NCBI RefSeq assembly: GCF_024713945.1
Contig: NC_134677.1
Location: 1,925,001-1,989,000, forward strand
Reading direction: 5' to 3'
DNA length: 64,000 nucleotides
Origin: Dermatophagoides farinae
Lineage: Eukaryota; Arthropoda; Arachnida; Sarcoptiformes; Pyroglyphidae
The notes below the pieces were generated by a model, which was not told where the DNA came from, did not search any database, and saw only the letters and a program-made list of their open reading frames with translations. The translations under genes were made by a program, and so were the position numbers. Numbering within the stretch: the first letter of the stretch is position 1; the number at the start of each line of letters is the position of its first letter. Shown here piece by piece: positions 818-35,000 of this stretch.

Positions 818-3800
818 ATGCATCATTACCGTCAAATTTGTATGGCCACTATCATCATAATTTTATTATTATTAAAATTATCACTGTTATTTCCCAATGT
901 TTATATGAAACCATCATCACAAGAAAAAAATTTTCGTTATTATTATGATCCAATAAATCCATATATAATCTACGATATTAATGATCATCATCATTTTGGA
1001 ATCTATAATAGATATATTCCATATGATTATGATCTACCTGAATATATAGGTTAATATACATGTTGTTTTTCAAAACAAAAACAAAAAAAATTTGTTTTCA
1101 TTTCTTCTCATTCATATAGAACATGTGAAAGGATTATATCCAAACATCATAAATTTAGCCGTTGATGCTATTATTTCGGTGAATGCTACATGTGGTGAAA
1201 CTGGGCCCGAATATTATTGTCGCTTGGTATCACATAAGTAAATCATGTTTTTTTTTCTTTTGCTTTTAGAATTTAATTTTAATTATTAATTTTTTTTCAT
1301 TCATTCAAATAAATAAAAGCATTAATACTAGCGATTGTAATGTTTGTGATGCATCTAATCCGGATTATTCAAAACGACATCCAATAAAAAATGTAATTGA
1401 TGGTACAGAAAATTGGTGGCAAAGTCCTAGTTTAAAGAATGGAAAACGTTATGAATGGGTTACCATTAACATTAATTTACGACAACTATATGAAATTGCC
1501 TATGTTATTATTAAATCGGCCATTTCTCCATTACCATCAAATTGGATACTTGAAAAATCAATCGATGGAATCAATTATTATCCGTGGCAATATTTTGCTC
1601 AAACTGATACTGAATGTTGGGAACGATATCGTGTTCGACCATCTATTGGAAAATTACGTTATAGAACTGATGATGAAGTTATTTGTACATCGATGTATTC
1701 GAAAAATAATGTCGTCGGACATGAAGAGGTAATTTGATCAATGATAAATGTTTTTTTTTTTATTTATTTATTTATCACTATTCATATTACATTTTTAGAT
1801 TGATGTTTCATTAATAAATGGAAGACCTGGAGCGGAAACAGCTGATGGAATCAGTCCAACATTGAGAGAATTTATCAAAGCACAACATATTCGAATTCGA
1901 ATGCAAAAAATTCGAACATTAAAAGGAAGCTTGTTCTATGATGCTAATGATATTGATAAAAGTGATAGCACACTAACTAATCGGGTATGTAATGTATATA
2001 ATCAAAAAGTAGATAATTTTTTTTCTCATGTTTATATTTATTTAGCTTTTTTATTCAATCAAAGACATATCGATCGGTGGTATGTGTACATGTAATGGAC
2101 ATGCTGATGAATGTCAGGCGCCAGATTTATCAGTAACAACAACCATACCAAATAGAGGAGGATTGATTAGCCATCCATTACCTAAATGTAATTGCCAACA
2201 TAATACATGTGGCCGTTCCTGTGAATCATGTTGTCCAATGTTTAATCAGAAAAAATGGCGTCCAGGTACTAAACGTGATGGTTCTCCATGTGAAGAATGT
2301 CAATGCCATGGACATTCTGATGAATGTTATTATGATCAAACGATTGCGGATAAAAAATTAAGCATCAACAAAGAAGGAAACTACGAAGGTGGTGGTGTTT
2401 GTGTTCGATGTAAGCATCATACGACTGGCATCAATTGTGAGCAATGTGTGGATGGGTATTTTAGACCAGAAGATGTTGAAATTGATAATGAACGACCATG
2501 TCTACGCTGTCAATGTAATGGACCTGGAATGAATAAACTTTGTGTTAAAGATGATAGTCATTTGATCGAAGGTCGTCATCCGGGCGATTGTCTTTGTCGT
2601 GAAGGATTCGAAGGTTCACGTTGCGATCGCTGTTCGAAAGGTTATCGAAATTATCCTCGTTGTGAAGAATGTTCTTGTGTTTATGCTGGCATAAAAAACT
2701 CTAATGTTTGCGACGGTAACTGTATCTGCAAGACGAATGTCTTTGGTAAAAGATGCAACAAGTGCCAAGAAGGATTTTATAATTTGGCCGCTGATAATCC
2801 GGAAGGCTGTTCGCAATGTTATTGTTTTGGAGCAACAAACGTATGCAAACCAAGTGATTGGGGTATTGAAGTTATCAAAAGTTCAGAACGATGGCGTGTT
2901 ACCGATATTCCTGGATCATTCAAATTGGAACCAGTGGTTGAAGATGGCCATTATGAGATTGCTGATGATTATATTCCTGATCGAGCACAAAATCTTTATT
3001 TCTGGGAAGCACCACCAGAATATCTTGGTCAAAATCTGTACACATATGGCAATGCTTTGAAATACATTGTCAGATATGTAATCGTTCGTGGTGATACTTC
3101 AGGCGTTTATACCGATGAACCTGATGTAATTCTTGAAGGTGGACCAGATAGTTCTCGTTATGGTTTTCGATGGCATAAACGACCAGAAGATTCGGATGAA
3201 GATGAACTAAATTCTACTATTATATTGCCATTACGTGAACAGAATTGGTTTCGTGTTGATGATAATGGACGAGAAATTCCAGATTCACAGCCATCACGTC
3301 AAGATTTTGCACTACTTTTACATGATTTAAAACGTTTGCTTATACGAGCCAAATATCATACTGATCAAGTATCCGGAGGACTATATCAAACTGATTTGGA
3401 AAAAGCATCAAATTCATCGGCCAGCATTAAAAAAGCTGTCGGTACGGAACAATGCGATTGTCCACCAGGATATGGTGGTCTTTCATGCGAGTATTGTGAA
3501 ACCGGATATAGACGTGTCAACAATGTTCTGGTGAATGGAGTATGTGAGAAATGTAACTGTAATAATCATGCGGAATCATGTGACCCATTTACGGGAGTAT
3601 GTTCCGAATGTCTTCATAATACGGTTGGTCCAACTTGTGGTGAATGCAGACCAGGTTTTTATGGCGACGCTACTCGTGGCCAAGAAGATGACTGCAAACC
3701 ATGTGCTTGTCCATTGTTGATTCCAACAAATAATTTTTCGCCAACATGTCGACTAGAATCATCAGCAAAATATGGTTATGTTTGTCTTGAATGCCCAGAA

Positions 3801-6800
3801 GGTTATACCGGGGAACGATGTGAAATTTGTTCCAATGGTTTTTATGGTAATCCGTTGATTCCTGGTGGATTCTGTGCCCCCTGTGAGTGTGGCCCAAACG
3901 CTAATACCACCGTTGAAGGATATTGTGATCGTTTGACTGGTCAATGTAAATATTGTTTGGAAAATTTCGGTGGCTGGAAATGCGATGAATGTCTACCAGA
4001 TCATTGGGGAAATGCCGTTATCGGAGATTGTAAAGCATGCAATTGTGATGTACAAGGATCCGTTAATACACAATGCAATTCCACAACTGGTCAGTGTGAA
4101 TGTAAGCCTAATTATACCGGCGTTCGCTGTGACCATTGTGCACCTGGTTATGGTAACATCGAATTGGGTTGTGTTCCATGTAACTGCAATATGACCGGAT
4201 CGATGGATCAATTTTGTGATGAAACTACCGGACAATGCCATTGTAAGCCGGGGGTATTTGGTCAGCATTGTGACAAATGTTTAGAAGGTCATTTTGGTTT
4301 CTCCAACAATGGTTGTGAATGGTGTAACTGTAACAAACTTGGATCTGAAGGACCAGATTGTGATGAATTTTCAGGTAAATTATTGTAACAAATAATTTTC
4401 GGTTGAAAATTAATTTCAAACATTTTTATTTCTGAAATAGGTCAATGTATTTGTAAACCATTTGTTTTTGGGCGAGACTGTAGCCGTTGTGAACCTGGAT
4501 TCTGGAATTTAGCATCAAATAAAGGATGTGAACCATGCAATTGTAATTATTTGTTGTAATTTGAATTTCTAAAAAATTATTCCGTTTTTTTCGATAGGCA
4601 ACATAACAGGTTCATATAGCAATGTTTGCAATGAAATGACTGGCCAATGTGAGTGTAAGAATGGAGTTGGTGGCCTTCATTGTGACCAGTGTTTACCTGG
4701 TTATTATGGATTTGGACCAAATGGATGTTTAGCTTGTGAACCATGTACAGCACCTGGTCATATTTGTGATCCCAAAAGCGGAAAATGTGTTTGTCCACCT
4801 AATACGGCAGGACCAACTTGTAATGATTGTGCACCTGGAACTTGGGGTTTTGATGTTCTTACCGGTTGTCAAACTTGCGATTGCAATCTTCAAGGATCAG
4901 TAAACAATGAATGTAACCACAAAACCGGTGAATGTGTCTGTTTGGATGGTTTCGAAGGAAAGCATTGTGAAAAATGCAAATTTGGTTATTATCGTTTCCC
5001 TAATTGTCGTCGTTGCGATTGCCATGAACCAGGAACTGATCCATCATCATGTCGTGAAGATGGACTATGCCAATGTGACGAAAGTGGTCAATGCCCTTGC
5101 AAACAAAATGTAGCCGGAAGAAGATGTGACGTGTGCAAAGAAGGTACTTTTGGTCTTGCTGCTGATAATCCGTTAGGATGTTTTCAATGTTTTTGTTTCG
5201 GAAAATCTGGACAATGTGACCAATCCAAAATGGTGTGGAGTGAACATAATTATCCACAACGTGAAGCTTATTTTGTCATTGGTTCGACCGAAATTCGTTC
5301 CGTACTTGGTTTCAAAACTATACCATCGGATACATCTTCGGTTGGTGTGAAGAATTTTGGCGAATTACAACAATCATTTTATTGGTCAATGCCACCAGAA
5401 ATGTTGAATGATCAGGTGGCCACTTATAATGGTTTCATACGATTCCGAACCTATGGGAGAGGTGGTGGAAAACTGAATGAAATGTTACGAAAACGTTATC
5501 CATTGGTTGTGCTTCAGGGTAATCATCGAATCATTCTTTATCATTATGGACCCGAACAATTATCACCCACTGGTTTATATCGTGTTCGTCTCCATGAAAC
5601 GGAATGGACTTTGGCCGATAATCCAGAATATCCTGTTACACGCGATGTTCTTATGGTAGCCTTGCAAAAAGTTCAACATATTTTGATTCGAGCTAGTGAT
5701 CTAACTGAAGCAAATTTCGTACGTATAAGCGATGTTTCCGTTGATTTAGCTACACTTGGTGGATTCTCATCAAAATTAGCTGCTGGCGTCGAACAATGTC
5801 TTTGTCCACCACAATACACTGAAGCATCATGTCAAGATCCAAATATTGGTTATTGTCGAAAACGTAAACAAAACTATCTGGATTCAAAAGATATTCTTGA
5901 TTTAGTTGGATGGGCTGAACCATGTAATTGTCATAATTATAGCCGAATTTGTGATAAAGAAACTTGTGAGTGTATGAATTGTGAATCATTCACAGCTGGA
6001 CCATATTGCAATCTTTGTCTTCATGGCTTTTATGGTGATCCAACACGTGCCATCCCATGTCGTAAATGTGCTTGTCCAACATTAATTAATTCTTTCAGTG
6101 AAACTTGTGAATTGCTACCCGGATCGAATTCTGAATATGTTTGTACAGACTGTCAAGTTGGCTACATCGGAAGACATTGTGAACAATGTGCCGATGGTTT
6201 TTGGGGCGATCCCATGGCACCTGATGGCAAATGCGTGCCATGTAATTGCTCACCAATCGGATCATTGAGCAACATTTGCGATAAACGAAGTGGTCAATGT
6301 CCCTGCAAAGAAGGTATAACCGGGCATGATTGCGGAAATTGCCCACCAAGACATGTTGTCACCGATACTGGATGTCTTAATTGTGATGATGATTGTACGG
6401 GAACATTATTGGATGATATCGAATTTTTACAATCAATTCTACAGGAAGCTAATCTTACAGATGTAGAAAATCTTCCCTGGACTCGTTTGATGTATTTGAC
6501 CAAAAAATATAATATTACCAATTCAAGAATGAATCAATTCAAAGAAAGAGTGATGAATGGTAAAAAAATGGTTCGTGATTTTACTGTTGATTTTGATCTG
6601 GAAACATTGGCCAATCTGCTGAATTTACAAGCAAGAGATCTTGCACGAAAAGCTCCTTATGAAGCTGAAAAAGCTCGAGATACTGTGAATAGAGCTCAAG
6701 ATATTAAAGATAGAATCAGTGATCTTTGGGAAAAAATACAGAACATCATCAATCAATTGAAACGTCATCTGGTAGATTCCACTGATCCATATGGATCAGC

Positions 6801-9800
6801 AGCTGATCGTATGTATGAAGAAGCTGTAAGAATTCTGCAAGAATTACGTATGACAGATTTTTCACCGGATAATCGAAAAGGAGACATTGAACTTAAAAAA
6901 GCTCAATATTTACTCGAACGTGTTCTACAGATGTTGACTGAACGTGGTGATACACAGCCAATGCAAGATCGTATTAGTAAACTATTACGATTACTTAATG
7001 AGATATATGAAATGATCAATCGAAAAGTATATCCGGAAACTAGAGAAGCTCAACGTATCGTCAATTCAATACGGCCATTATTGCAGGCCATTTTCGATGC
7101 ACGAGATAGCGCCGTACAGAATGGTGATGCAGCACGTATTGCATTGAATGAAGCACGAGAATTATTGGATCTGATACATCGTGAATTGTTTGATACAAAA
7201 ATCAAATTCAATGATCTGGCCGATTTAATTGGACAAATGAATGAATTAACCGATGAAATTGAGAAAAGAAGAAGTATTCTGGCCAGATTGAATCCAGAAT
7301 ATGAAGAAAAATATGTCAAACCATGTGAAGATCATGCTGCCGAACTAATGCGTCGTGTAAATGAACTGGGTCGATTATTCAATCAGACCAGAGATGTTGC
7401 TGGATCACCAATGCAAGCTGCAAATGTTTACGAAAATATTGTGAAAGCTTTGACCGAAGCCGAAGAGGCTGTAGCCAATGCACGAGCAGCTGCCGAAAAA
7501 GCTTTCTTCGAAGCCAATCCAGATGGTGATGATTCTTTATTACAACAAGCTATTCAGGCACGAAAACGAAGTGAAGAATTGCTTAAGGAAGCCGATGATC
7601 TTAATAAACGTCTTCGTGATTTTCAATATGAGATTGCCCAAAAACAACGAATGCTGGCCGAAATCGAAGCTATGATTGATGCTGCTCGACAGGATCTAGA
7701 TTGGATCAACAAAAGTCTTGATCAATTACCACGTGGACTGGGCAATGAAGTTCGAGTCATCAATGATCGTCTACAATCATTATTAGACAATCTGGCCAAC
7801 AGTCATAAACGTTTAGATGAAATGATGACACGAATCTATACACTGGAACAGGATTTGGAAAAATTAAGTTCAGGACCAAAAGCAGATTTGGATGATATTA
7901 AACGAGATATTACACAATCATTGAATCTATTGAAACGATTGAAAGAAGAGATTGTTAAAATCGAATCCAAAGGACCTGGTCTTCAACGACATCAACAACA
8001 ATTCGATTTAAATTTGGATGAATTGAAAGCTAAGATTAAAATTAGCAAGACAAAAAGCTGCTAGTATTCGTGTGTCATTGGGTGCCGATCGTGAAGGTGT
8101 CTGTATTCGAACATATGAACCAGATATTGAGCCATCATTCACGAATAATATTGTCATGTATTATGCCATTAAACATGAACATATCCGTGACAGTTTACTA
8201 ATGTATCTTGGTGCACGTGAAAGTCAAGGCTATAATAATGATTTTATGGCATTAGAAATGGTTGATAGAAAAATACGATTTATTTGGAGCACTGGAAATA
8301 ATGAAAGAATGATAACTCATCCACAGAATATATTAACTAATGATAATTCGTTAAGTAAAGATTCACATTGGTATAAGATAGAAGTGAAAAGATATGGTTC
8401 TACGGCAAATCTTTCCGTCATTTCGGTACCGGTAAGTCAAGTAAATTAACATTAATTATTTAACTTGAATCATGAATACTCTAATCTATTTTCTTCTATT
8501 ACAGGGAGCAAGATTCCCAGATCCATTTGAAATGAGTGGTTCATCAAGTTCCGAATCGAAACAAATGAATTTAGATCGTAATTCATATTTTTACATTGGT
8601 GGTTTACCATCGGAAATGCCACATATTCCAAGACAATTACAATCACGATCTTTTGGTGGTTGTCTATTTGAATTGTATCTTGACGGTAAACGTGTTGGTT
8701 TATGGAATTTCACAAGTAATATCGGTTGTGATGGCTGTATGGAGGGAGCAACCGAACCGATTGGTAATTGAAAAATCTAAAATTACAATTGATAAATCCT
8801 TCTAAACTGAAATTTCATAATTGACAGATCCGAACATGTACACATTTTTCGACGAATTCGCTTATGGCAAGACCAGGCAAATTTCCAACTATAATCGAGA
8901 TCGATATCTGGTTTCAATGCATTTCCGTACATTTGATGAAAATGCTTTGTTGTTTTTCACATCGAATCCTCGAACTCGTGATTATGTTGCAATCTATTTA
9001 AAAGATGGTCATGTTCATTATGAATGTCATTTTGGTTCGGGTCCAGGACGACCAGGCCTATTACAATCGATTGTTACTGAGGAGAAACTCAACACCGGAA
9101 ATTGGGTCAATCTACGAGCCGAACGGGAGAAAGATGAGGCTGTCCTAGAATTCATAATGGATTCACAGAAAAGAAATTATGAAAAAACATTGCAATCAAG
9201 CGGAAGATCCATTGATTTAGATCTTATTGGATCAGACGTTTATTTTGGTGGTGTAACACCAAACTTTACGCTAATCAGCAATTTAGAATATCCAAATGTT
9301 ATATTTAAATCATTCGTTGGCTGTATGAATTCACCACAAATTGAAGCCATACCTATTAATTTCCAACGAATTCAATCATTCGGTATCGAACCTGGTTGTA
9401 TGGAGAAACCGATTCGAGTGGCAAGTTTCTTTGGTGATGGATATCTTGAATTGGATGGTCAACCATTAACTGATCATACGGAATTTAGTTTTACATTTAA
9501 GACGCCTAGACCTCATGGCGTTCTATTATTATCCACCTTCGAAGGATTACCAAGAAGTTACGATAGAAAAGATGATGTAAGTCTATTCATTTACAACAAG
9601 ATTTTTGGTTCAAAAAGAATTTTTTCCCATTTTTCACAGCATTACTACTTTTTCTACATTTATAATGGAACTCTTGAAGTACGATTGAATGGTGGCGGTG
9701 GTGTTAGCAGCTATCGTTTCGATAATATCAATGTTTCCGATGGTAAATATCATACGGTTACTTGTATCAAAGATATGCGTAGATTCCGTATTCTTATCGA

Positions 9801-10199
9801 TGATGAACACGAAAGTACACAGCTACGTTTAGCTAAATCACGTGTGATTGAAGCACCAAAAAAAGGTGGTCTTTTCATCGGTGGTACCCGTAAGTATATT
9901 ATTGCTTTGGTTCAATTTTATTGAATTAAAATGATCATCATTGTTTTGTTTTAGCGCCTGGCTTTACCGTCATCAATAAAGGTTATGCATCGAATTTTTA
10001 CGGTGTTATCCGAGATATTGTGTTCAATTCAAAATTGATCTCGTTCAATAATCCTGCCAGTTTCCGGGGTGTTGGCATTGGCCATGAAGGCAGTTTTGAG
10101 ATCATACATACACCATCACCACCACCACTAGAACCATATGATGATCTTCAACAATCAACATGGCGACAGGCAAGCCGTATTCGAGCTCCAATGCTTTAA
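818..10199 (+). CDS. wb: Laminin subunit alpha (alpha1/2, wing blister type), truncated after LG3
   Basis: Secreted basement-membrane chain that trimerises with laminin beta and gamma. Inferred exons: 818-1049, 1120-1237, 1320-1728, 1799-1984, 2046-4374, 4441-4542, 4598-8431, 8505-8763, 8828-9576, 9640-9889, 9955-10199. All ten introns are GT-AG and 55-82 bp. Allowing for one extra base at 8038-8041, the exons sum to 2,904 codons (about 2,903 aa). Domains in order: signal peptide (about 1-30), LN domain (about 80-327, with the typical WWQSP motif), LE repeats (328-585), first L4 (about 590-780), LE repeats, second L4 (about 1337-1524), LE repeats to about 1720, coiled coil to about 2270, then LG1, LG2 and LG3. 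Two L4 domains set in LE arrays are the alpha1/2 layout. Family members normally have five LG domains; this one ends after LG3 in a proline-rich linker. The start at 818 is the first Met of the signal peptide; Met9 is an alternative. Family assignment is very sure; orthology to wb rather than LanA is moderately sure. Confidence 0.93.
8038..8041 (+). other. Single-base frameshift in laminin exon 7 (A4 run)
   Basis: The frame carrying the coiled coil runs into TAG at 8062-8064, while the LG1 reading frame is offset by one base. Dropping one A from the AAAA run at 8038-8041 joins the two frames into a smooth laminin sequence (coiled-coil end reading KLARQKAASIRVSLGADR). No intron can be one base long and no GT-AG pair here restores the frame. 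A sequencing or assembly homopolymer error is the simplest explanation; a real frameshift allele is the alternative. Confidence 0.85.
9577..9639 (+). other. 63-bp in-frame intron within laminin LG3
   Basis: The donor GTAAGT and acceptor TTTTCACAG bound a 63-bp segment that is a multiple of three and has no stop codon, so reading straight through stays open. Removing it joins the residues RKDD and HYYF, which matches LG-domain strand spacing better than the 21-residue insertion does. Retention would give a longer isoform, but nothing in the sequence shows that this happens. Confidence 0.75.
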
Positions 10200-10329
10200 T
10201 TGAGATGATGAAATTGCATAATTAAAACAAAGAATAACCATTTTTCCCGAAATTATTATTATATGAACAAAATTTCTAATCGATTTTCATTATTCAATCG
10301 ATATTTTTACTAATTTTTTTTTGTCTTTG

Positions 10330-10335
10330 AATAAA
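10330..10335 (+). promoter_or_regulatory. Candidate poly(A) signal of the laminin gene
   Basis: AATAAA lies 131 bp after the laminin stop codon on the same strand, in AT-rich sequence. This is positional evidence only. Confidence 0.45.
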
Positions 10336-11329
10336 CATTTTCATTTTCTTCTCCATGATGAATGATTAACAATTTCATATTTTATTTTTGAATTTCAACT
10401 CAAGATGGCAGCATAAACAAAAGGAAATGATTTATGCCATTTATGTTGTTCACGATTCTGAATATGAAATGAATTTTGTGTGGTTGTTGTTTTTGTTTCA
10501 AAATTTATTTATATATAAAGTAACGTTCGTGCAACGGTTGAGAAGAAGAACTTTATTAGTCAACTAATCAAAGGTTAAACAACAAGCGAGTGTCCAGTGT
10601 TTGTGTCATGACCTTATATACATGTTGTGTCCTTTGTGTGTGTGTGTGTGACATTAGTAGTAGTGGTGGTGTTGTGTAGTGTGAGTGGTACGTGTGTGTG
10701 TGGGAGTGCCGCCTATTTTATAATATAATATGATAATATGATGTTTCCGTTTTTTTTTGTTTGACCAAAAATTTTTTTGGACATAGGATTACAAGAATTT
10801 ATTAATGTTTTATATGTGACGTTGTTTACAAATAAAATTAAATTTTTTTTAAACAGAATTTTAAGGACAAAAAGTTGTAATGACACGAATCGATGCATAA
10901 AAAGGTTTCGAGAACGAACGTAATTCACCGAAATATTGATGTACGAAAAGAAAAAAAAAACATAAGACGAAAAAATAACAGATTTTTTATAAAAAACAAA
11001 GGCTTTATTAACGAGATGATTTTTCTCGATCAAAAACAAAAAACTAAACAAAAGTGAGAAATTTATATGCAACAGAAAAAACCAAAAAACGTTTTCTGAT
11101 GACACACAGGCCAAAAACATGAACACACGCGCAGTCGTAGTTTAACAAAAAGTAATAAAAATAAGAAAGATAATTTCAAAGTGATGACAATTTATTTATT
11201 TGAATGAAAGAATGATAAATTGGAGGTTGATGAATTTTTTTTTTTGATGAACCTGCGTGTGTGTGTGTGTTATGTGATTTTGTAAATGAATTCTCAAATC
11301 ATTTCAGATGGTGATTAAAGACAGAAATA
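10336..11329. other. Intergenic, AT-rich, microsatellites
   Basis: No supported gene. (GT)n tracts lie near 10636-10651 and 11251-11270. I looked here for the missing laminin LG4-LG5 domains on the + strand and saw no stretch resembling LG coding sequence. The open frame on the minus strand at 10713-11126 is low-complexity and not credible. Confidence 0.5.
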
Positions 11330-11866
11330 TTAGATAAGAGCATAGCTAAAAGCTTTGAATTGGATCGCATAAGGATTATTCTGTGCCAGAAAATCATGAA
11401 TTTGAACCAACAAAGTTCTTTCAAGATCAGAATTAGCTGGATGCTCTAATCGACGTTCTGCAGCCTCCTTCGGCCATATCTGAGCTAAACCCGATCTTCA
11501 GGGTGGAGGTTCATCATGACGCATTCCAATTGAGGCAAAACTCAAGGAAGCATTGTAGTTGATTATGTGTTTTTTGAAATAACCATAATTTGGATTTTCA
11601 CGATTTGTGAGTAAATCCTTCAAGAAATCCGGATAACCAACGAATCGTTGCGGTTTGCCGTTGTGGCAGCAATCGTTTGATGTTTCGCACGGGAAAAGAT
11701 AAGCATTGCATCTGCTGCATTGTTTATTCCTTTTGTTTTTTTTGAAGTCGTCGTCGGGTCACTTCCGGGCTTTCTCCGGCTCGAGTTTCAAAACAGAATC
11801 ACTTTGGTTGGAGCGATAGGCACGCATATACTCACGCCTACGTGCTCTTTCTTGTTCGTTTGGCAT
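11330..11866 (-). mobile_element. Decayed Helitron Rep/helicase-like N-terminal fragment
   Basis: Reading the minus strand from the ATG at 11866 gives one continuous 179-codon frame with two internal TGA stops and a final TAA. The start (MPNEQERARRREYMRAYR) resembles the basic N terminus of Helitron proteins. A cysteine cluster follows (CSRC, then DCCHNGK), then a block containing YNASLSFASIGMRHDEPPP, the Helitron helicase-like N-terminal signature in which this block precedes a proline-rich stretch. The last third (LERTLLVQIHDFLAQNNPYA) matches the family's conserved region ending in NPY. The part expected between the proline stretch and this region is missing, so there is an internal deletion as well as the stops. 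The Rep catalytic core and the helicase domain are absent. Not functional. The assignment rests on motif recognition from memory. Confidence 0.75.
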
Positions 11867-12142
11867 TTTCTTTTCTTTATTTTTTCTTCAAACGAAATCA
11901 AACGAAAACACTAAAAAAATGCATGATGATGGTGAATGGTGAACAAACAATGAAATGAAAATGATTCGAATTCAAATTCGGAATCAAAAATGATGATGAT
12001 TAGATTAGATTAGAATTAGAATTGATAAAAACAATATTCACTTTTCAATACTCATAATCATACTCATACATGCACACAAAATGAAAATCACGTGTGTCAC
12101 TATCAAAATTCGAATTCGAACTCTTTCTATGTTCTATTGAAT

Positions 12143-13312: not shown

Positions 13313-13828
<516 letters not shown>

Positions 13829-32253: not shown

Positions 32254-35000
32254 ATGAAGAACCAGTATTCACCACCGCCAATACAGTAAAAAAAATGTGT
32301 CTTCGACTCGTTAACAAAACTACTAGTGGTTGGTTGTCCTTTTTTTTTGATTGTCTCTTTCTCTATCTCATGATGACGATGTGAATGATTGTGTGATTAT
32401 GAGTAGCCAGTTCGGTATTTTTTTCGTTCTGTTGTTATTGTTGTTGTTATTGGCATAGGTAATAATCTTACCTTTCGCCCAAAATTGTGTTTGTATGTAT
32501 TGAGATGCTTGAATGGTAATTGTTGTTTTTTGTTGTTGTTGTTGTTGTTGTTGATAATAGTTTGAGTCGATTATGAATAGAAATGTTCAAATATAGAAAA
32601 AAAACACTTGCTTCCACGGCGACCATCAAATCACTCTTTGATATGACATACACACACAGACACAGACACACAATGTCGAGGTTTATACTTTTTATCCGTA
32701 AATAATGGATAATGATGATGATGATGATGGTAAAATATATTTATGGTGCATGCACACTTTTTTTTTATCATCATCATTATTATTACATGTTATCATAAAT
32801 CATCATGAATCGAATAGACTTGATTATCCAGACATGATTATTGTGGCTCTATGTTTATAGAACTAGAAAAAAAACAAACAATTTTATGTTGACATTTAAA
32901 AAAAAAAAATACATACGACAACAACAAGAATAATTACCTATTTCATAGTAAAACTCAAATCAATCCATACCAGGTAAAAATAAACCACCAAAAACAACTT
33001 GTGGATTATATATTGAAGAAAAAAAAATTGCACTGTAAAAACAAAATTTCTCTCGTTGATTTTCGATTTTTATGTGGCTGCCATTTGAATTTCACAGAAA
33101 AGGAAAAAAATCAAAATCAATCATTCATTCCTTTTTTTCTTCAATGATTGATATGTACTAAGAATAGAATCCGATTATTTGAACATGAATAAATGGATCC
33201 TTTTTAGGAATGAAATGAAAATAAAAACGGATTGTATGTTTATGTTGTTTCGGAATCACAGCATGATTATATTATTATTAAAATCCATCACAAAGAATTG
33301 TATATACACAAACAAAAGCAACAACAAATACTCATTAATTCATGATGTGATGAAAATTTTTATCCACGGATAATAAAATGTAAACAATGTGATTATTACA
33401 ATTTTTATTTTCTGATTGAAAATAAAAATGAATCCACATTTGATTGAATGGAAAAAAAACCAGATCACCGTTGTGGCATGATTTTTTTTTTTTTTGTTCG
33501 AGTCTGTTTATTATCACTATATTACAACAATTGCAGAATATTGCCAAATTCATTGTTATTGTTTCAAAATATCATCGGTTCAATACATTCTTCAACACTA
33601 GATGGCATGCCTATTGCAAAATATTTTTTTTCATTCATCATTTATTTACATTCGAAAATGCTGCTATTATATTGTTTTCATTGTTCTCTTTTTGTTGAAT
33701 TTCAATTTTTTTTTGCTTTTCATCATCTTTGAAAAAAAGTTTTTTTTTGATATTAGATCTGATGATGATGATTATCATGTCAATCAAATGATTAGTGATT
33801 TGTAAATTTATTTCAACTGAAATCATCTTTTTTTTCTGGTAATACAATGTATAACATGAAAAATAATGTTTCCAATCTTATGATTATAATGATGATGATG
33901 ATGATGTTTGACATATGAAAGTTTTGGTTCCCATAACGTAAAAGATAAAATCTTGATCACATCATTATTATTAATATCATCATCATTCTAAATCGAACAT
34001 GAACGTGAATCATTTAGAATCTTTAGAATTCTCATATTTTCAATTTTGTTTGGTTTCTCTGGTAGTGAAAATGTCAACTTTTCTTTCACGCTTTTCCAAC
34101 CACAGCCATCAACCATGGATATCGTTATCGTTGAATAGTTTTTTTTTTGGCAACAAAAAAACAAGAAGAAGAAGAAAATAAAAACGAATCAGAATCAAAT
34201 GAAAGTTATTAATGACCAGATTTATGAAACATCCAGACAAACAAACAAACAAACAAACATGAAAAAAAACTAATGAGAAAAATAATGATTTTATCTCTTC
34301 TTTGAAATGGAATTCATTTTCAACTGTGTCGATTGTGTGTGTGTATTTGTTACAAATCGAATGAATGAATTGCCGCGTGTCATCCATTTCATTTCGTTGG
34401 ATTCATTTTTTTATATTCTCACTGGTCACTGATAATCAGTTATATCGATAAATGGCAAGAATATAGTGAATCCGATAAATGGTTTTGATTACACACACAC
34501 ACACACACACACCATATTATTGTTCATCATCATTAGCATCATTTGGATGACACAATATTGTTCATTTCCGATTATGTTCTAATGATTTTTTTTCAATCTC
34601 TGTTCCACATTCTATTACGAGATACAAGATAAATGATTTCAACTTTTTTTTTCTTCTGGATTTAATTATGAATCAAACCAATATGTGGTTGTGTGTGTGT
34701 GTGTGTATGTGGTGTCCAATATATTGTTGTTGAATTTGTTCAAAATATCCGATTATCAAATTCTCAAATTTCCATTCATTTGTATATTGTTGAAAATTCA
34801 CAATTCAACCCGTATCTCAGTCAAATTTCAAAATGATTATCGTGCTTGTCAATTATCTCATCAATATTTCAAATAAATCGATTGATCTGAACATGCACAC
34901 GCACACACACAACGAAATTCAACAAAGAATTAATCAAATTATCACAAAAAAAAAATTCTTCCGAAGACAAATTAACAAAGCCATATGATCATTGTGTAAA
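30695..35000. other. Gene desert, first part (upstream of RalGAP-alpha)
   Basis: No gene supported. The start probably holds the RalGAP-alpha promoter. Simple repeats include tandem ATGATTA copies (about 31140-31170), (CT)n at 32219-32249, (GTT)n near 32534-32553, (CA)n near 34491-34512 and (GT)n near 34690-34707. Confidence 0.45.
32219..32249. repeat. (CT)n microsatellite
   Basis: About 15 uninterrupted CT units. Confidence 0.95.

What the first reader, a model, noticed from the sequence alone, without database searches (positions are those of the whole stretch)
9955..10199. Laminin alpha ends after LG3: LG4-LG5 missing and both LG3 cysteines gone
The alpha chain is otherwise full length, yet the last exon ends about 35 residues after LG3 in a proline-rich linker. 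The roughly 1.1 kb that would encode LG4-LG5 is not found downstream. LG3's two usual disulfide cysteines are both replaced: the GC motif is GV (codon at 10005-10007), and the C-terminal IGRC-like site reads GIGHEG. Paired loss of a disulfide plus loss of LG4-LG5 looks like lineage-specific remodelling. In other animals LG4-LG5 bind dystroglycan and heparin and can be removed by proteolysis, so this chain would be made already in the processed form.
Basis: partly seen in the sequence, partly recalled or inferred. Interest (0 to 1): 0.72.

Follow-up and report, generated by a model that had tools for sequence, protein, structure and literature searches.

The report
Laminin alpha chain lacking LG4-LG5
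In one mite genome, one of two laminin alpha genes (laminin is a main protein of basement membranes) ends after its third C-terminal globule and lacks the last two, which in other animals help bind dystroglycan and heparin; the other alpha gene keeps all five.

Summary
The core observation holds. The spliced C terminus (8045-10199) is LG1-LG2-LG3, colinear with laminin alpha1 and alpha2 LG1-3. Coding ends at TAA 10197-10199, 36 residues into a linker-like tail. No LG match follows in the window or for 280 kb on the contig. The second alpha gene shows LG1-LG5 in the same search, so whole LG domains are detectable, though this gene's own short last exon was not reported. Both LG3 cysteines are replaced.
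Two corrections. (1) One surplus base in an A-run (8038-8041) breaks the frame between coil and LG1, with TAG at 8062-8064. An assembly error is likeliest; a real allele is not excluded. (2) Cysteine loss is not tied to LG4-LG5 loss: the other alpha chain lost its LG1 pair yet keeps LG4-LG5.
Best reading: an LG1-3-only laminin, a natural counterpart of the engineered deltaE3 alpha1 chain. LG1-3 may still bind dystroglycan. A DAG1 search found no dystroglycan, but LARGE is present, so absence is unproven. Transcripts and other mites could not be tested.

The parts
1324..1734 (+). Part of the laminin N-terminal (LN) domain in one ORF
   Evidence: Pfam PF00055, E 1e-32, residues 19-155 of window:1270-1737
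3000..3425 (+). First L4 (Laminin_B) domain
   Evidence: Pfam PF00052, E 9.8e-21
5380..5793 (+). Second L4 (Laminin_B) domain
   Evidence: Pfam PF00052, E 2.2e-21
6400..8044 (+). Coiled-coil region (start approximate)
   Evidence: Pfam PF06008 Laminin_I, E 1.7e-10, residues 680-804 of window:4573-8061; ORF list. Laminin_II was not matched here
8038..8041 (+). A-run with one base too many: +1 frameshift between coil and LG1; coil frame stops at TAG 8062-8064
   Evidence: the two frames side by side match the second alpha chain across the junction
8045..8744 (+). LG1 (exons 8045-8431 and 8505-8763; borders approximate), cysteine pair kept (GGC...GCDGC)
8828..9402 (+). LG2 (in exon 8828-9576; borders approximate), cysteine pair kept
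9403..10088 (+). LG3 (in exons 8828-9576, 9640-9889, 9955-10199; borders approximate), both cysteines replaced (V at 10005-10007, E at 10086-10088)
10089..10199 (+). 36-residue tail, Pro-rich in its first half, in the place of the LG3-LG4 linker, ending at TAA 10197-10199
10330..10335 (+). AATAAA, candidate poly(A) signal; one of six A[AT]TAAA in 10200-11400, so weak evidence

Best explanation
The gene encodes a laminin alpha chain (LN, two L4 domains, coil, LG1-LG3) whose coding sequence now ends in the LG3-LG4 linker. Shown from sequence: the order LG1-LG2-LG3, the stop, the missing LG4-LG5, and a paralogue with five LG domains. Inferred: the chain joins beta and gamma through its coil; LG1-LG3 close into the triangular integrin-binding head, in which LG3 mainly holds the triangle; the trimer anchors cells through integrin but lacks the LG4-LG5 sites for dystroglycan, heparin and sulfatide, keeping at most the LG1-3 sites. 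The missing tasks would fall to the other alpha chain and other LG proteins. It works like the engineered deltaE3 alpha1 chain or a proteolytically processed laminin, but is made so from the gene. Assumed: LG3 folds without its terminal disulfide, and the 1-base frameshift is an assembly error.
For: LG1-3 colinear with alpha1 and alpha2 LG1-3. 629 open codons over five exons with four GT-AG introns. No further LG match in the window (chance fragment aside) or 280 kb beyond. Second alpha gene, coil and LG part at C2:4659560-4662848, shows LG1-LG5, and its LG4 plus first half of LG5 aligns with alpha2 LG4-5. No second copy of that stretch: 23 matches, best other than itself 43 bits, at an LG/EGF locus. 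The 40 LG matches outside the two alpha genes lie in 14 loci; 18 stretches of these were scanned and 16 hit LG, beside EGF, Ig, cadherin, Kazal, GAIN, HYR or Cadherin_3 domains or alone. Mini-E8 paper (PMC5343747, passages): integrin site at LG1/LG2 and gamma tail, LG3 need likely indirect. deltaE3 mice (PMC2906511, passages): an LG1-3-only alpha1 works in part.
Against: The frame is broken upstream of LG1 in this assembly; if real, the main product ends before LG1. The run is only 4 A long, not a typical homopolymer error. Laminin_II, the coil part next to LG1, was found in the second alpha chain (49 bits) but not in this gene at E<=0.1. LG1-3 of alpha1 and alpha2 also bind dystroglycan, listed as strong for LG1-3 of laminin-211 (PMC11260871, passages), so this chain may not have left that axis. 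No transcript, relative or dN/dS shows that LG1-3 is under selection. The splice junctions upstream of the coil were not traced, and no structure was predicted.
Confidence: 0.64

Rival explanations
1. The frameshift is real: the gene, or this allele, is decaying, or makes a chain that ends at the coil's end without LG domains. Loss of LG4-LG5 and of the LG3 cysteines are then steps of decay.
For: +1 shift at 8038-8041 with TAG at 8062-8064. The LG3 cysteine pair is gone. No further frameshift within this gene's ORFs of 780 and 1163 codons or in the 2163-codon frame of the second alpha gene, so the assembly is not generally error-prone here. Laminin_II is not recognised in this coil.
Against: All 629 codons after the shift are open, with intact splice sites and strong match to LG1-3. 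LG1 and LG2 keep their cysteines.
Confidence: 0.18
2. An unusual short intron spans the junction (for example 7979-8045, 67 nt, or 7954-8029, 76 nt), so there is no error and the chain is intact up to LG3.
For: 6 GT/GC-AG combinations restore an open frame, two of them near the length of this gene's LG introns.
Against: Donors GTCTTC and GTTAAA and purine-rich acceptors are unlike the four introns of the LG part. The segment removed contains LDELKAKI, which matches IADLKKRI of the second alpha chain in register.
Confidence: 0.08
3. LG4-LG5 exist but were missed: distant, fragmented or trans-spliced 3' exons, or a local misassembly that dropped them.
For: The tail looks like the start of an LG3-LG4 linker, as if the rest had been cut off. 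The assembly has at least one suspicious base nearby. The genome search missed this gene's own short last exon.
Against: No N in the window. No LG match for 280 kb downstream and no spare copy of LG4-LG5. The same search reported all five LG domains of the other alpha gene. A ubiquitin-conjugating enzyme gene sits 3.1 kb on.
Confidence: 0.08

Closest known systems
Mouse deltaE3 laminin alpha1 (engineered, LG4-LG5 deleted; PMC2906511, passages read)
   Same: Alpha chain ending after LG1-3; keeps the integrin-binding head, lacks LG4-LG5.
   Different: Engineered and overexpressed in mice; here it is the natural gene, with its own 36-residue tail and no LG3 cysteine pair.
Proteolytically processed laminins such as laminin-332 (truncation described in PMC11260871, passages; removal of alpha3 LG4-5 recalled)
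   Same: A laminin whose alpha chain acts with a shortened C terminus.
   Different: Shortened after translation by proteases; here LG4-LG5 are not encoded at this locus at all.
Alpha1/alpha2-type chains, including Drosophila wing blister (type assignment recalled)
   Same: LN plus two L4 domains, coil and LG1-3.
   Different: Alpha1 and alpha2 carry LG4-LG5 (solved); for wing blister this is recalled. The better match to alpha1/alpha2 than to alpha5 does not set the type, because the second alpha chain shows the same preference.
Second alpha chain of the same genome (LanA-type by recall), C2:4659560-4662848
   Same: Similar coil-LG1 junction and LG1-3.
   Different: Keeps LG4 and LG5; lost the LG1 cysteine pair instead.

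Membership tests
Laminin alpha chain (alpha1/alpha2 type) | LN domain at the N terminus | tested here: met
   PF00055 E 1e-32, part of the domain in one ORF
Laminin alpha chain (alpha1/alpha2 type) | Two L4 (Laminin_B) domains among LE repeats | tested here: met
   PF00052 once in each long ORF, EGF_laminin 8 and 7 stretches; that this marks the alpha1/alpha2 type is recalled
Laminin alpha chain (alpha1/alpha2 type) | Coiled coil before the LG head | tested here: met
   PF06008 Laminin_I E 1.7e-10; PF06009 Laminin_II not matched in this gene
Laminin alpha chain (alpha1/alpha2 type) | LG1-LG3 head | tested here: met
   colinear with 5mc9 and 2wjs
Laminin alpha chain (alpha1/alpha2 type) | Closer to alpha1/alpha2 than to alpha3/alpha5 by sequence | tested here: inconclusive
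   alpha5 scores far lower, but it also does for the second alpha chain; no tree was made
Laminin alpha chain (alpha1/alpha2 type) | LG4-LG5 pair | tested here: not met
   not found downstream, and no spare copy in the genome
Laminin alpha chain (alpha1/alpha2 type) | Uninterrupted reading frame from coil to LG1 | tested here: not met
   +1 shift at 8038-8041 in this assembly
[quoted passage not shown]
   the gamma gene of this genome was not fetched; binding is an experiment

The most novel reading that the evidence does not exclude
This mite lineage has taken one of its two laminins largely out of the dystroglycan axis: the chain lost LG4-LG5 together with loss (or extreme divergence) of dystroglycan itself, while dystrophin-type, sarcoglycan and LARGE-type genes stayed. 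Anchoring by this laminin would then be integrin-only by gene structure, and the retained LARGE would have to serve another carrier.
Probability: 0.16. Interest if true: 0.75.

Novelty: new variant of a known kind. Interest (0 to 1): 0.42.

Why it matters
LG4-LG5 are usually treated as a standing part of laminin alpha chains, removed by proteases or by design (my summary of recalled background and the passages). A gene that ends after LG3, beside a paralogue that keeps all five, is a natural experiment on what LG4-LG5 add beyond integrin binding. If dystroglycan proves to be missing as well, it would touch the published statement that dystroglycan is found in all metazoans except ctenophores (PMC10293626, passages; the same review suggests that the complex is also absent in Nemertea).

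Tried and rejected
Missed LG4-LG5 in the window: a local HMM of nine LG sequences over six frames gave a 31-residue match at 33214-33342 (E 0.0039), which scored above the true last exon (E 0.04); rejected as chance for want of the Gly-Gly and Cys landmarks; the further matches had E 0.94 or worse.

LG4-LG5 moved elsewhere: 49 matches were reported; 4 lie in this gene, 5 in the second alpha gene, 40 in 14 other loci. I scanned 18 stretches of those 14 loci with Pfam: 16 hit LG; 2 did not (L050:3098-3415 EGF only, L054:238-669 cadherin only). The L050 LG stretches, L051 and L052 gave LG alone, and the stretches are parts of loci, so gene identities are not settled; names such as neurexin, perlecan, agrin or slit types are my reading.

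Alpha type by structure matches: the preference for alpha1/alpha2 over alpha5 looked telling until the second alpha chain showed it too; dropped as an argument.

Dystroglycan: DAG1 (PF05454) gave nothing at E<=0.1 and one 12.3-bit match at E 2.5 in an ORF that I read as another kind of membrane protein. The tool warned that nothing rang in its 14 control genomes either, so silence does not show absence. The recalled C-terminal motif PPPYVPP had 0 matches; as too strict, it was relaxed to PPPYV: 18 matches against 20 for the reversed pattern. All 18 were read; the 5 with a stop soon after the motif were read with about 1.4 kb upstream and none looked like a dystroglycan tail. Dystrophin-type EF-hand matches (3, at two places), sarcoglycan matches (7, at four places) and Glyco_transf_49 matches (7, at four places), one with GT8+GT49 as in LARGE, are present. 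LARGE speaks against a true loss, so I do not claim it.

Relatives: one scan of viral contigs with the LG2-LG3 exon found none; genome contigs (bacteria and archaea) was not scanned. Papers: nine searches listed no title or abstract start on a naturally LG4-LG5-less laminin alpha gene or on mite laminin structure, but the lists were capped: 14 of 14 papers; 17 of 19; 1 of 1; 20 of 53; 15 of 1,482; 15 of 83; 5 of 3,033; 15 of 1,305; 10 of 58. Passages only were read in eight papers. So novelty in print is not established. Structure prediction was not run: the spliced head is not letter-for-letter in the window.

Species: 1 of 8 group-2 allergen family matches was compared with solved structures; Der p 2 and Der f 2 are its best matches but far from identical in the printed alignment. 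Probably an astigmatan mite, not settled; another of the 8 could be closer.

Full report
What was checked. The window lies in a 62.4 Mb genome (G000:C1:1925001-1989000), which from a group-2 allergen homologue looks like an astigmatan mite. The gene starts near 0.8 kb and runs on the + strand (start read by eye). Pfam finds an LN domain, laminin EGF repeats, two L4 domains and a coil; that this order marks alpha1/alpha2-type chains is recalled.

The C terminus. The LG part is spliced from exons 8045-8431, 8505-8763, 8828-9576, 9640-9889 and 9955-10199, with four GT...AG introns of 63-73 nt. Of its 629 residues, 1-583 align with LG1-3 of laminin alpha1 (5mc9, E 2.2e-64) and 5-592 with alpha2 (2wjs, E 4.9e-62). 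So the three domains are LG1, LG2 and LG3 and not, say, LG1, LG2 and LG5. After LG3 come 36 residues, Pro-rich at first, and TAA at 10197-10199. AATAAA follows at 10330, but six such signals lie in 10200-11400, so it is weak evidence.

Is LG4-LG5 really absent? The Laminin_G_2 search of the genome reported 49 matches: 4 in this gene, 5 in a second alpha gene, 40 elsewhere. On contig C1 none lies between the end of this gene and 2,215,332, about 280 kb on. The search has limits: its counts are lower bounds, and it did not report this gene's own short last exon. The second alpha gene (C2:4659560-4662848, minus strand) shows LG1 to LG5 in the same search, and its LG4 with the first half of LG5 aligns with alpha2 LG4-5, so whole LG4-LG5 domains are visible to the method. 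With that stretch as query there were 23 matches; the best other than itself is 43 bits, at a locus of LG and EGF domains. Within the window a permissive HMM gave one chance-like fragment. There is no N in the window.

The cysteines. In LG3 the GC of alpha1 (FHGC) and alpha2 (FQGC) is GV here (codon GTT at 10005-10007), and the second site reads GIGHE where LG3 of the second alpha chain has FKKC. The Cys after alpha2's DIGR is recalled, since the alignment ends at the R. LG1 and LG2 of this chain keep their pairs. In the second alpha chain the LG1 pair is gone (FYGVISN...YNIQG) while LG4-LG5 stay. So pair loss occurs on its own, and its coincidence with LG4-LG5 loss is weak evidence for one event.

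The frameshift. The coil frame runs into TAG at 8062-8064, and LG1 is in the next frame. LDELKAKIK in the coil frame, followed by LARQKAASIRV in the next frame, matches IADLKKRIQLARHQANNMRV of the second alpha chain across the junction, which places one surplus base in the A-run 8038-8041. Six alternative introns would also restore a frame, but those of ordinary length have poor splice signals. No further frameshift lies within the ORFs of 780 and 1163 codons; the junctions between the upstream exons were not traced. Laminin_II, next to LG1 in the coil, was matched in the second alpha gene but not in this one at E<=0.1. I take an assembly error as most likely, but a real allele would change the story: the chain would end before LG1.

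How it most likely works. In mini-E8 of laminin-111 the integrin site is placed on LG1/LG2 next to the gamma tail, LG3 closes the triangle, and the need for LG3 is thought to be indirect (PMC5343747, passages). LG4 and LG4-5 carry dystroglycan, heparin and sulfatide binding; LG1-3 bind dystroglycan as well, listed as weak for laminin-111 and strong for laminin-211 (PMC11260871, passages). Mice given an alpha1 chain without LG4-LG5 show that such a chain works in part: diaphragm and heart were corrected, limb muscle and nerve myelination were not (PMC2906511, passages). By analogy the mite chain should anchor cells through integrin and lack the LG4-LG5 functions, which the other alpha chain can supply. 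This is inference from homology; nothing functional was measured.

Dystroglycan. Because it is a main LG4-LG5 ligand, I looked for it. DAG1 gave no match at E<=0.1, and the only candidate, at E 2.5, did not look like it; a C-terminal PPPYV pattern gave 18 matches against 20 for its reversed control, none a convincing dystroglycan tail. By family search, dystrophin-type EF-hands, sarcoglycans and a LARGE-type protein (GT8+GT49) are found. A published survey reports dystroglycan in insects, crustaceans and chelicerates (PMC4582122, passages). LARGE makes matriglycan on dystroglycan (PMC8478517, passages), so its presence argues that dystroglycan may be divergent and missed. There was no animal positive control for the DAG1 search. 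I leave this open.

Verdict. The truncation is real in this assembly and is controlled by the paralogue. It is a new variant of a known kind: a laminin alpha gene with an LG1-3 head only. Whether it has been reported elsewhere is not excluded by my capped literature searches (listed under tried and rejected). The open points are the frameshift, transcripts and relatives. On rechecking I lowered the main odds slightly (0.66 to 0.64) because LG1-3 can bind dystroglycan, Laminin_II was not matched in this gene, and the last exon itself escaped the genome search; the odds of the rivals and of the novel case were moved by 0.01 for the same reasons.

Noticed in passing
8038-8041 (TAG at 8062-8064): One surplus base in an A-run breaks the laminin frame between coil and LG1.
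   Followed up: partly
G000, whole genome (best DAG1 match C4:5134034-5134219, L055): No recognisable dystroglycan in a DAG1 search without an animal control, although dystrophin-type, sarcoglycan and LARGE-type genes are found.
   Followed up: partly
L039 (C2:4658001-4664000): The second laminin alpha chain keeps LG1-LG5 but has lost the LG1 cysteine pair.
   Followed up: yes
11330-11887, minus strand: Broken ORF pieces (REYMRAYRSN..., CCHNGKPQRF...) that by recall resemble a Helitron-like fragment; Pfam gave no match to the 85-aa piece tested.
   Followed up: partly
13313-13828, minus strand: Ubiquitin-conjugating enzyme (UQ_con, E 1.6e-53), the next clear gene seen downstream.
   Followed up: yes
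G000 C1, C2, C4, C6: 8 matches to the family of group-2 mite allergens; the one compared is far from identical to Der p 2 and Der f 2.
   Followed up: partly
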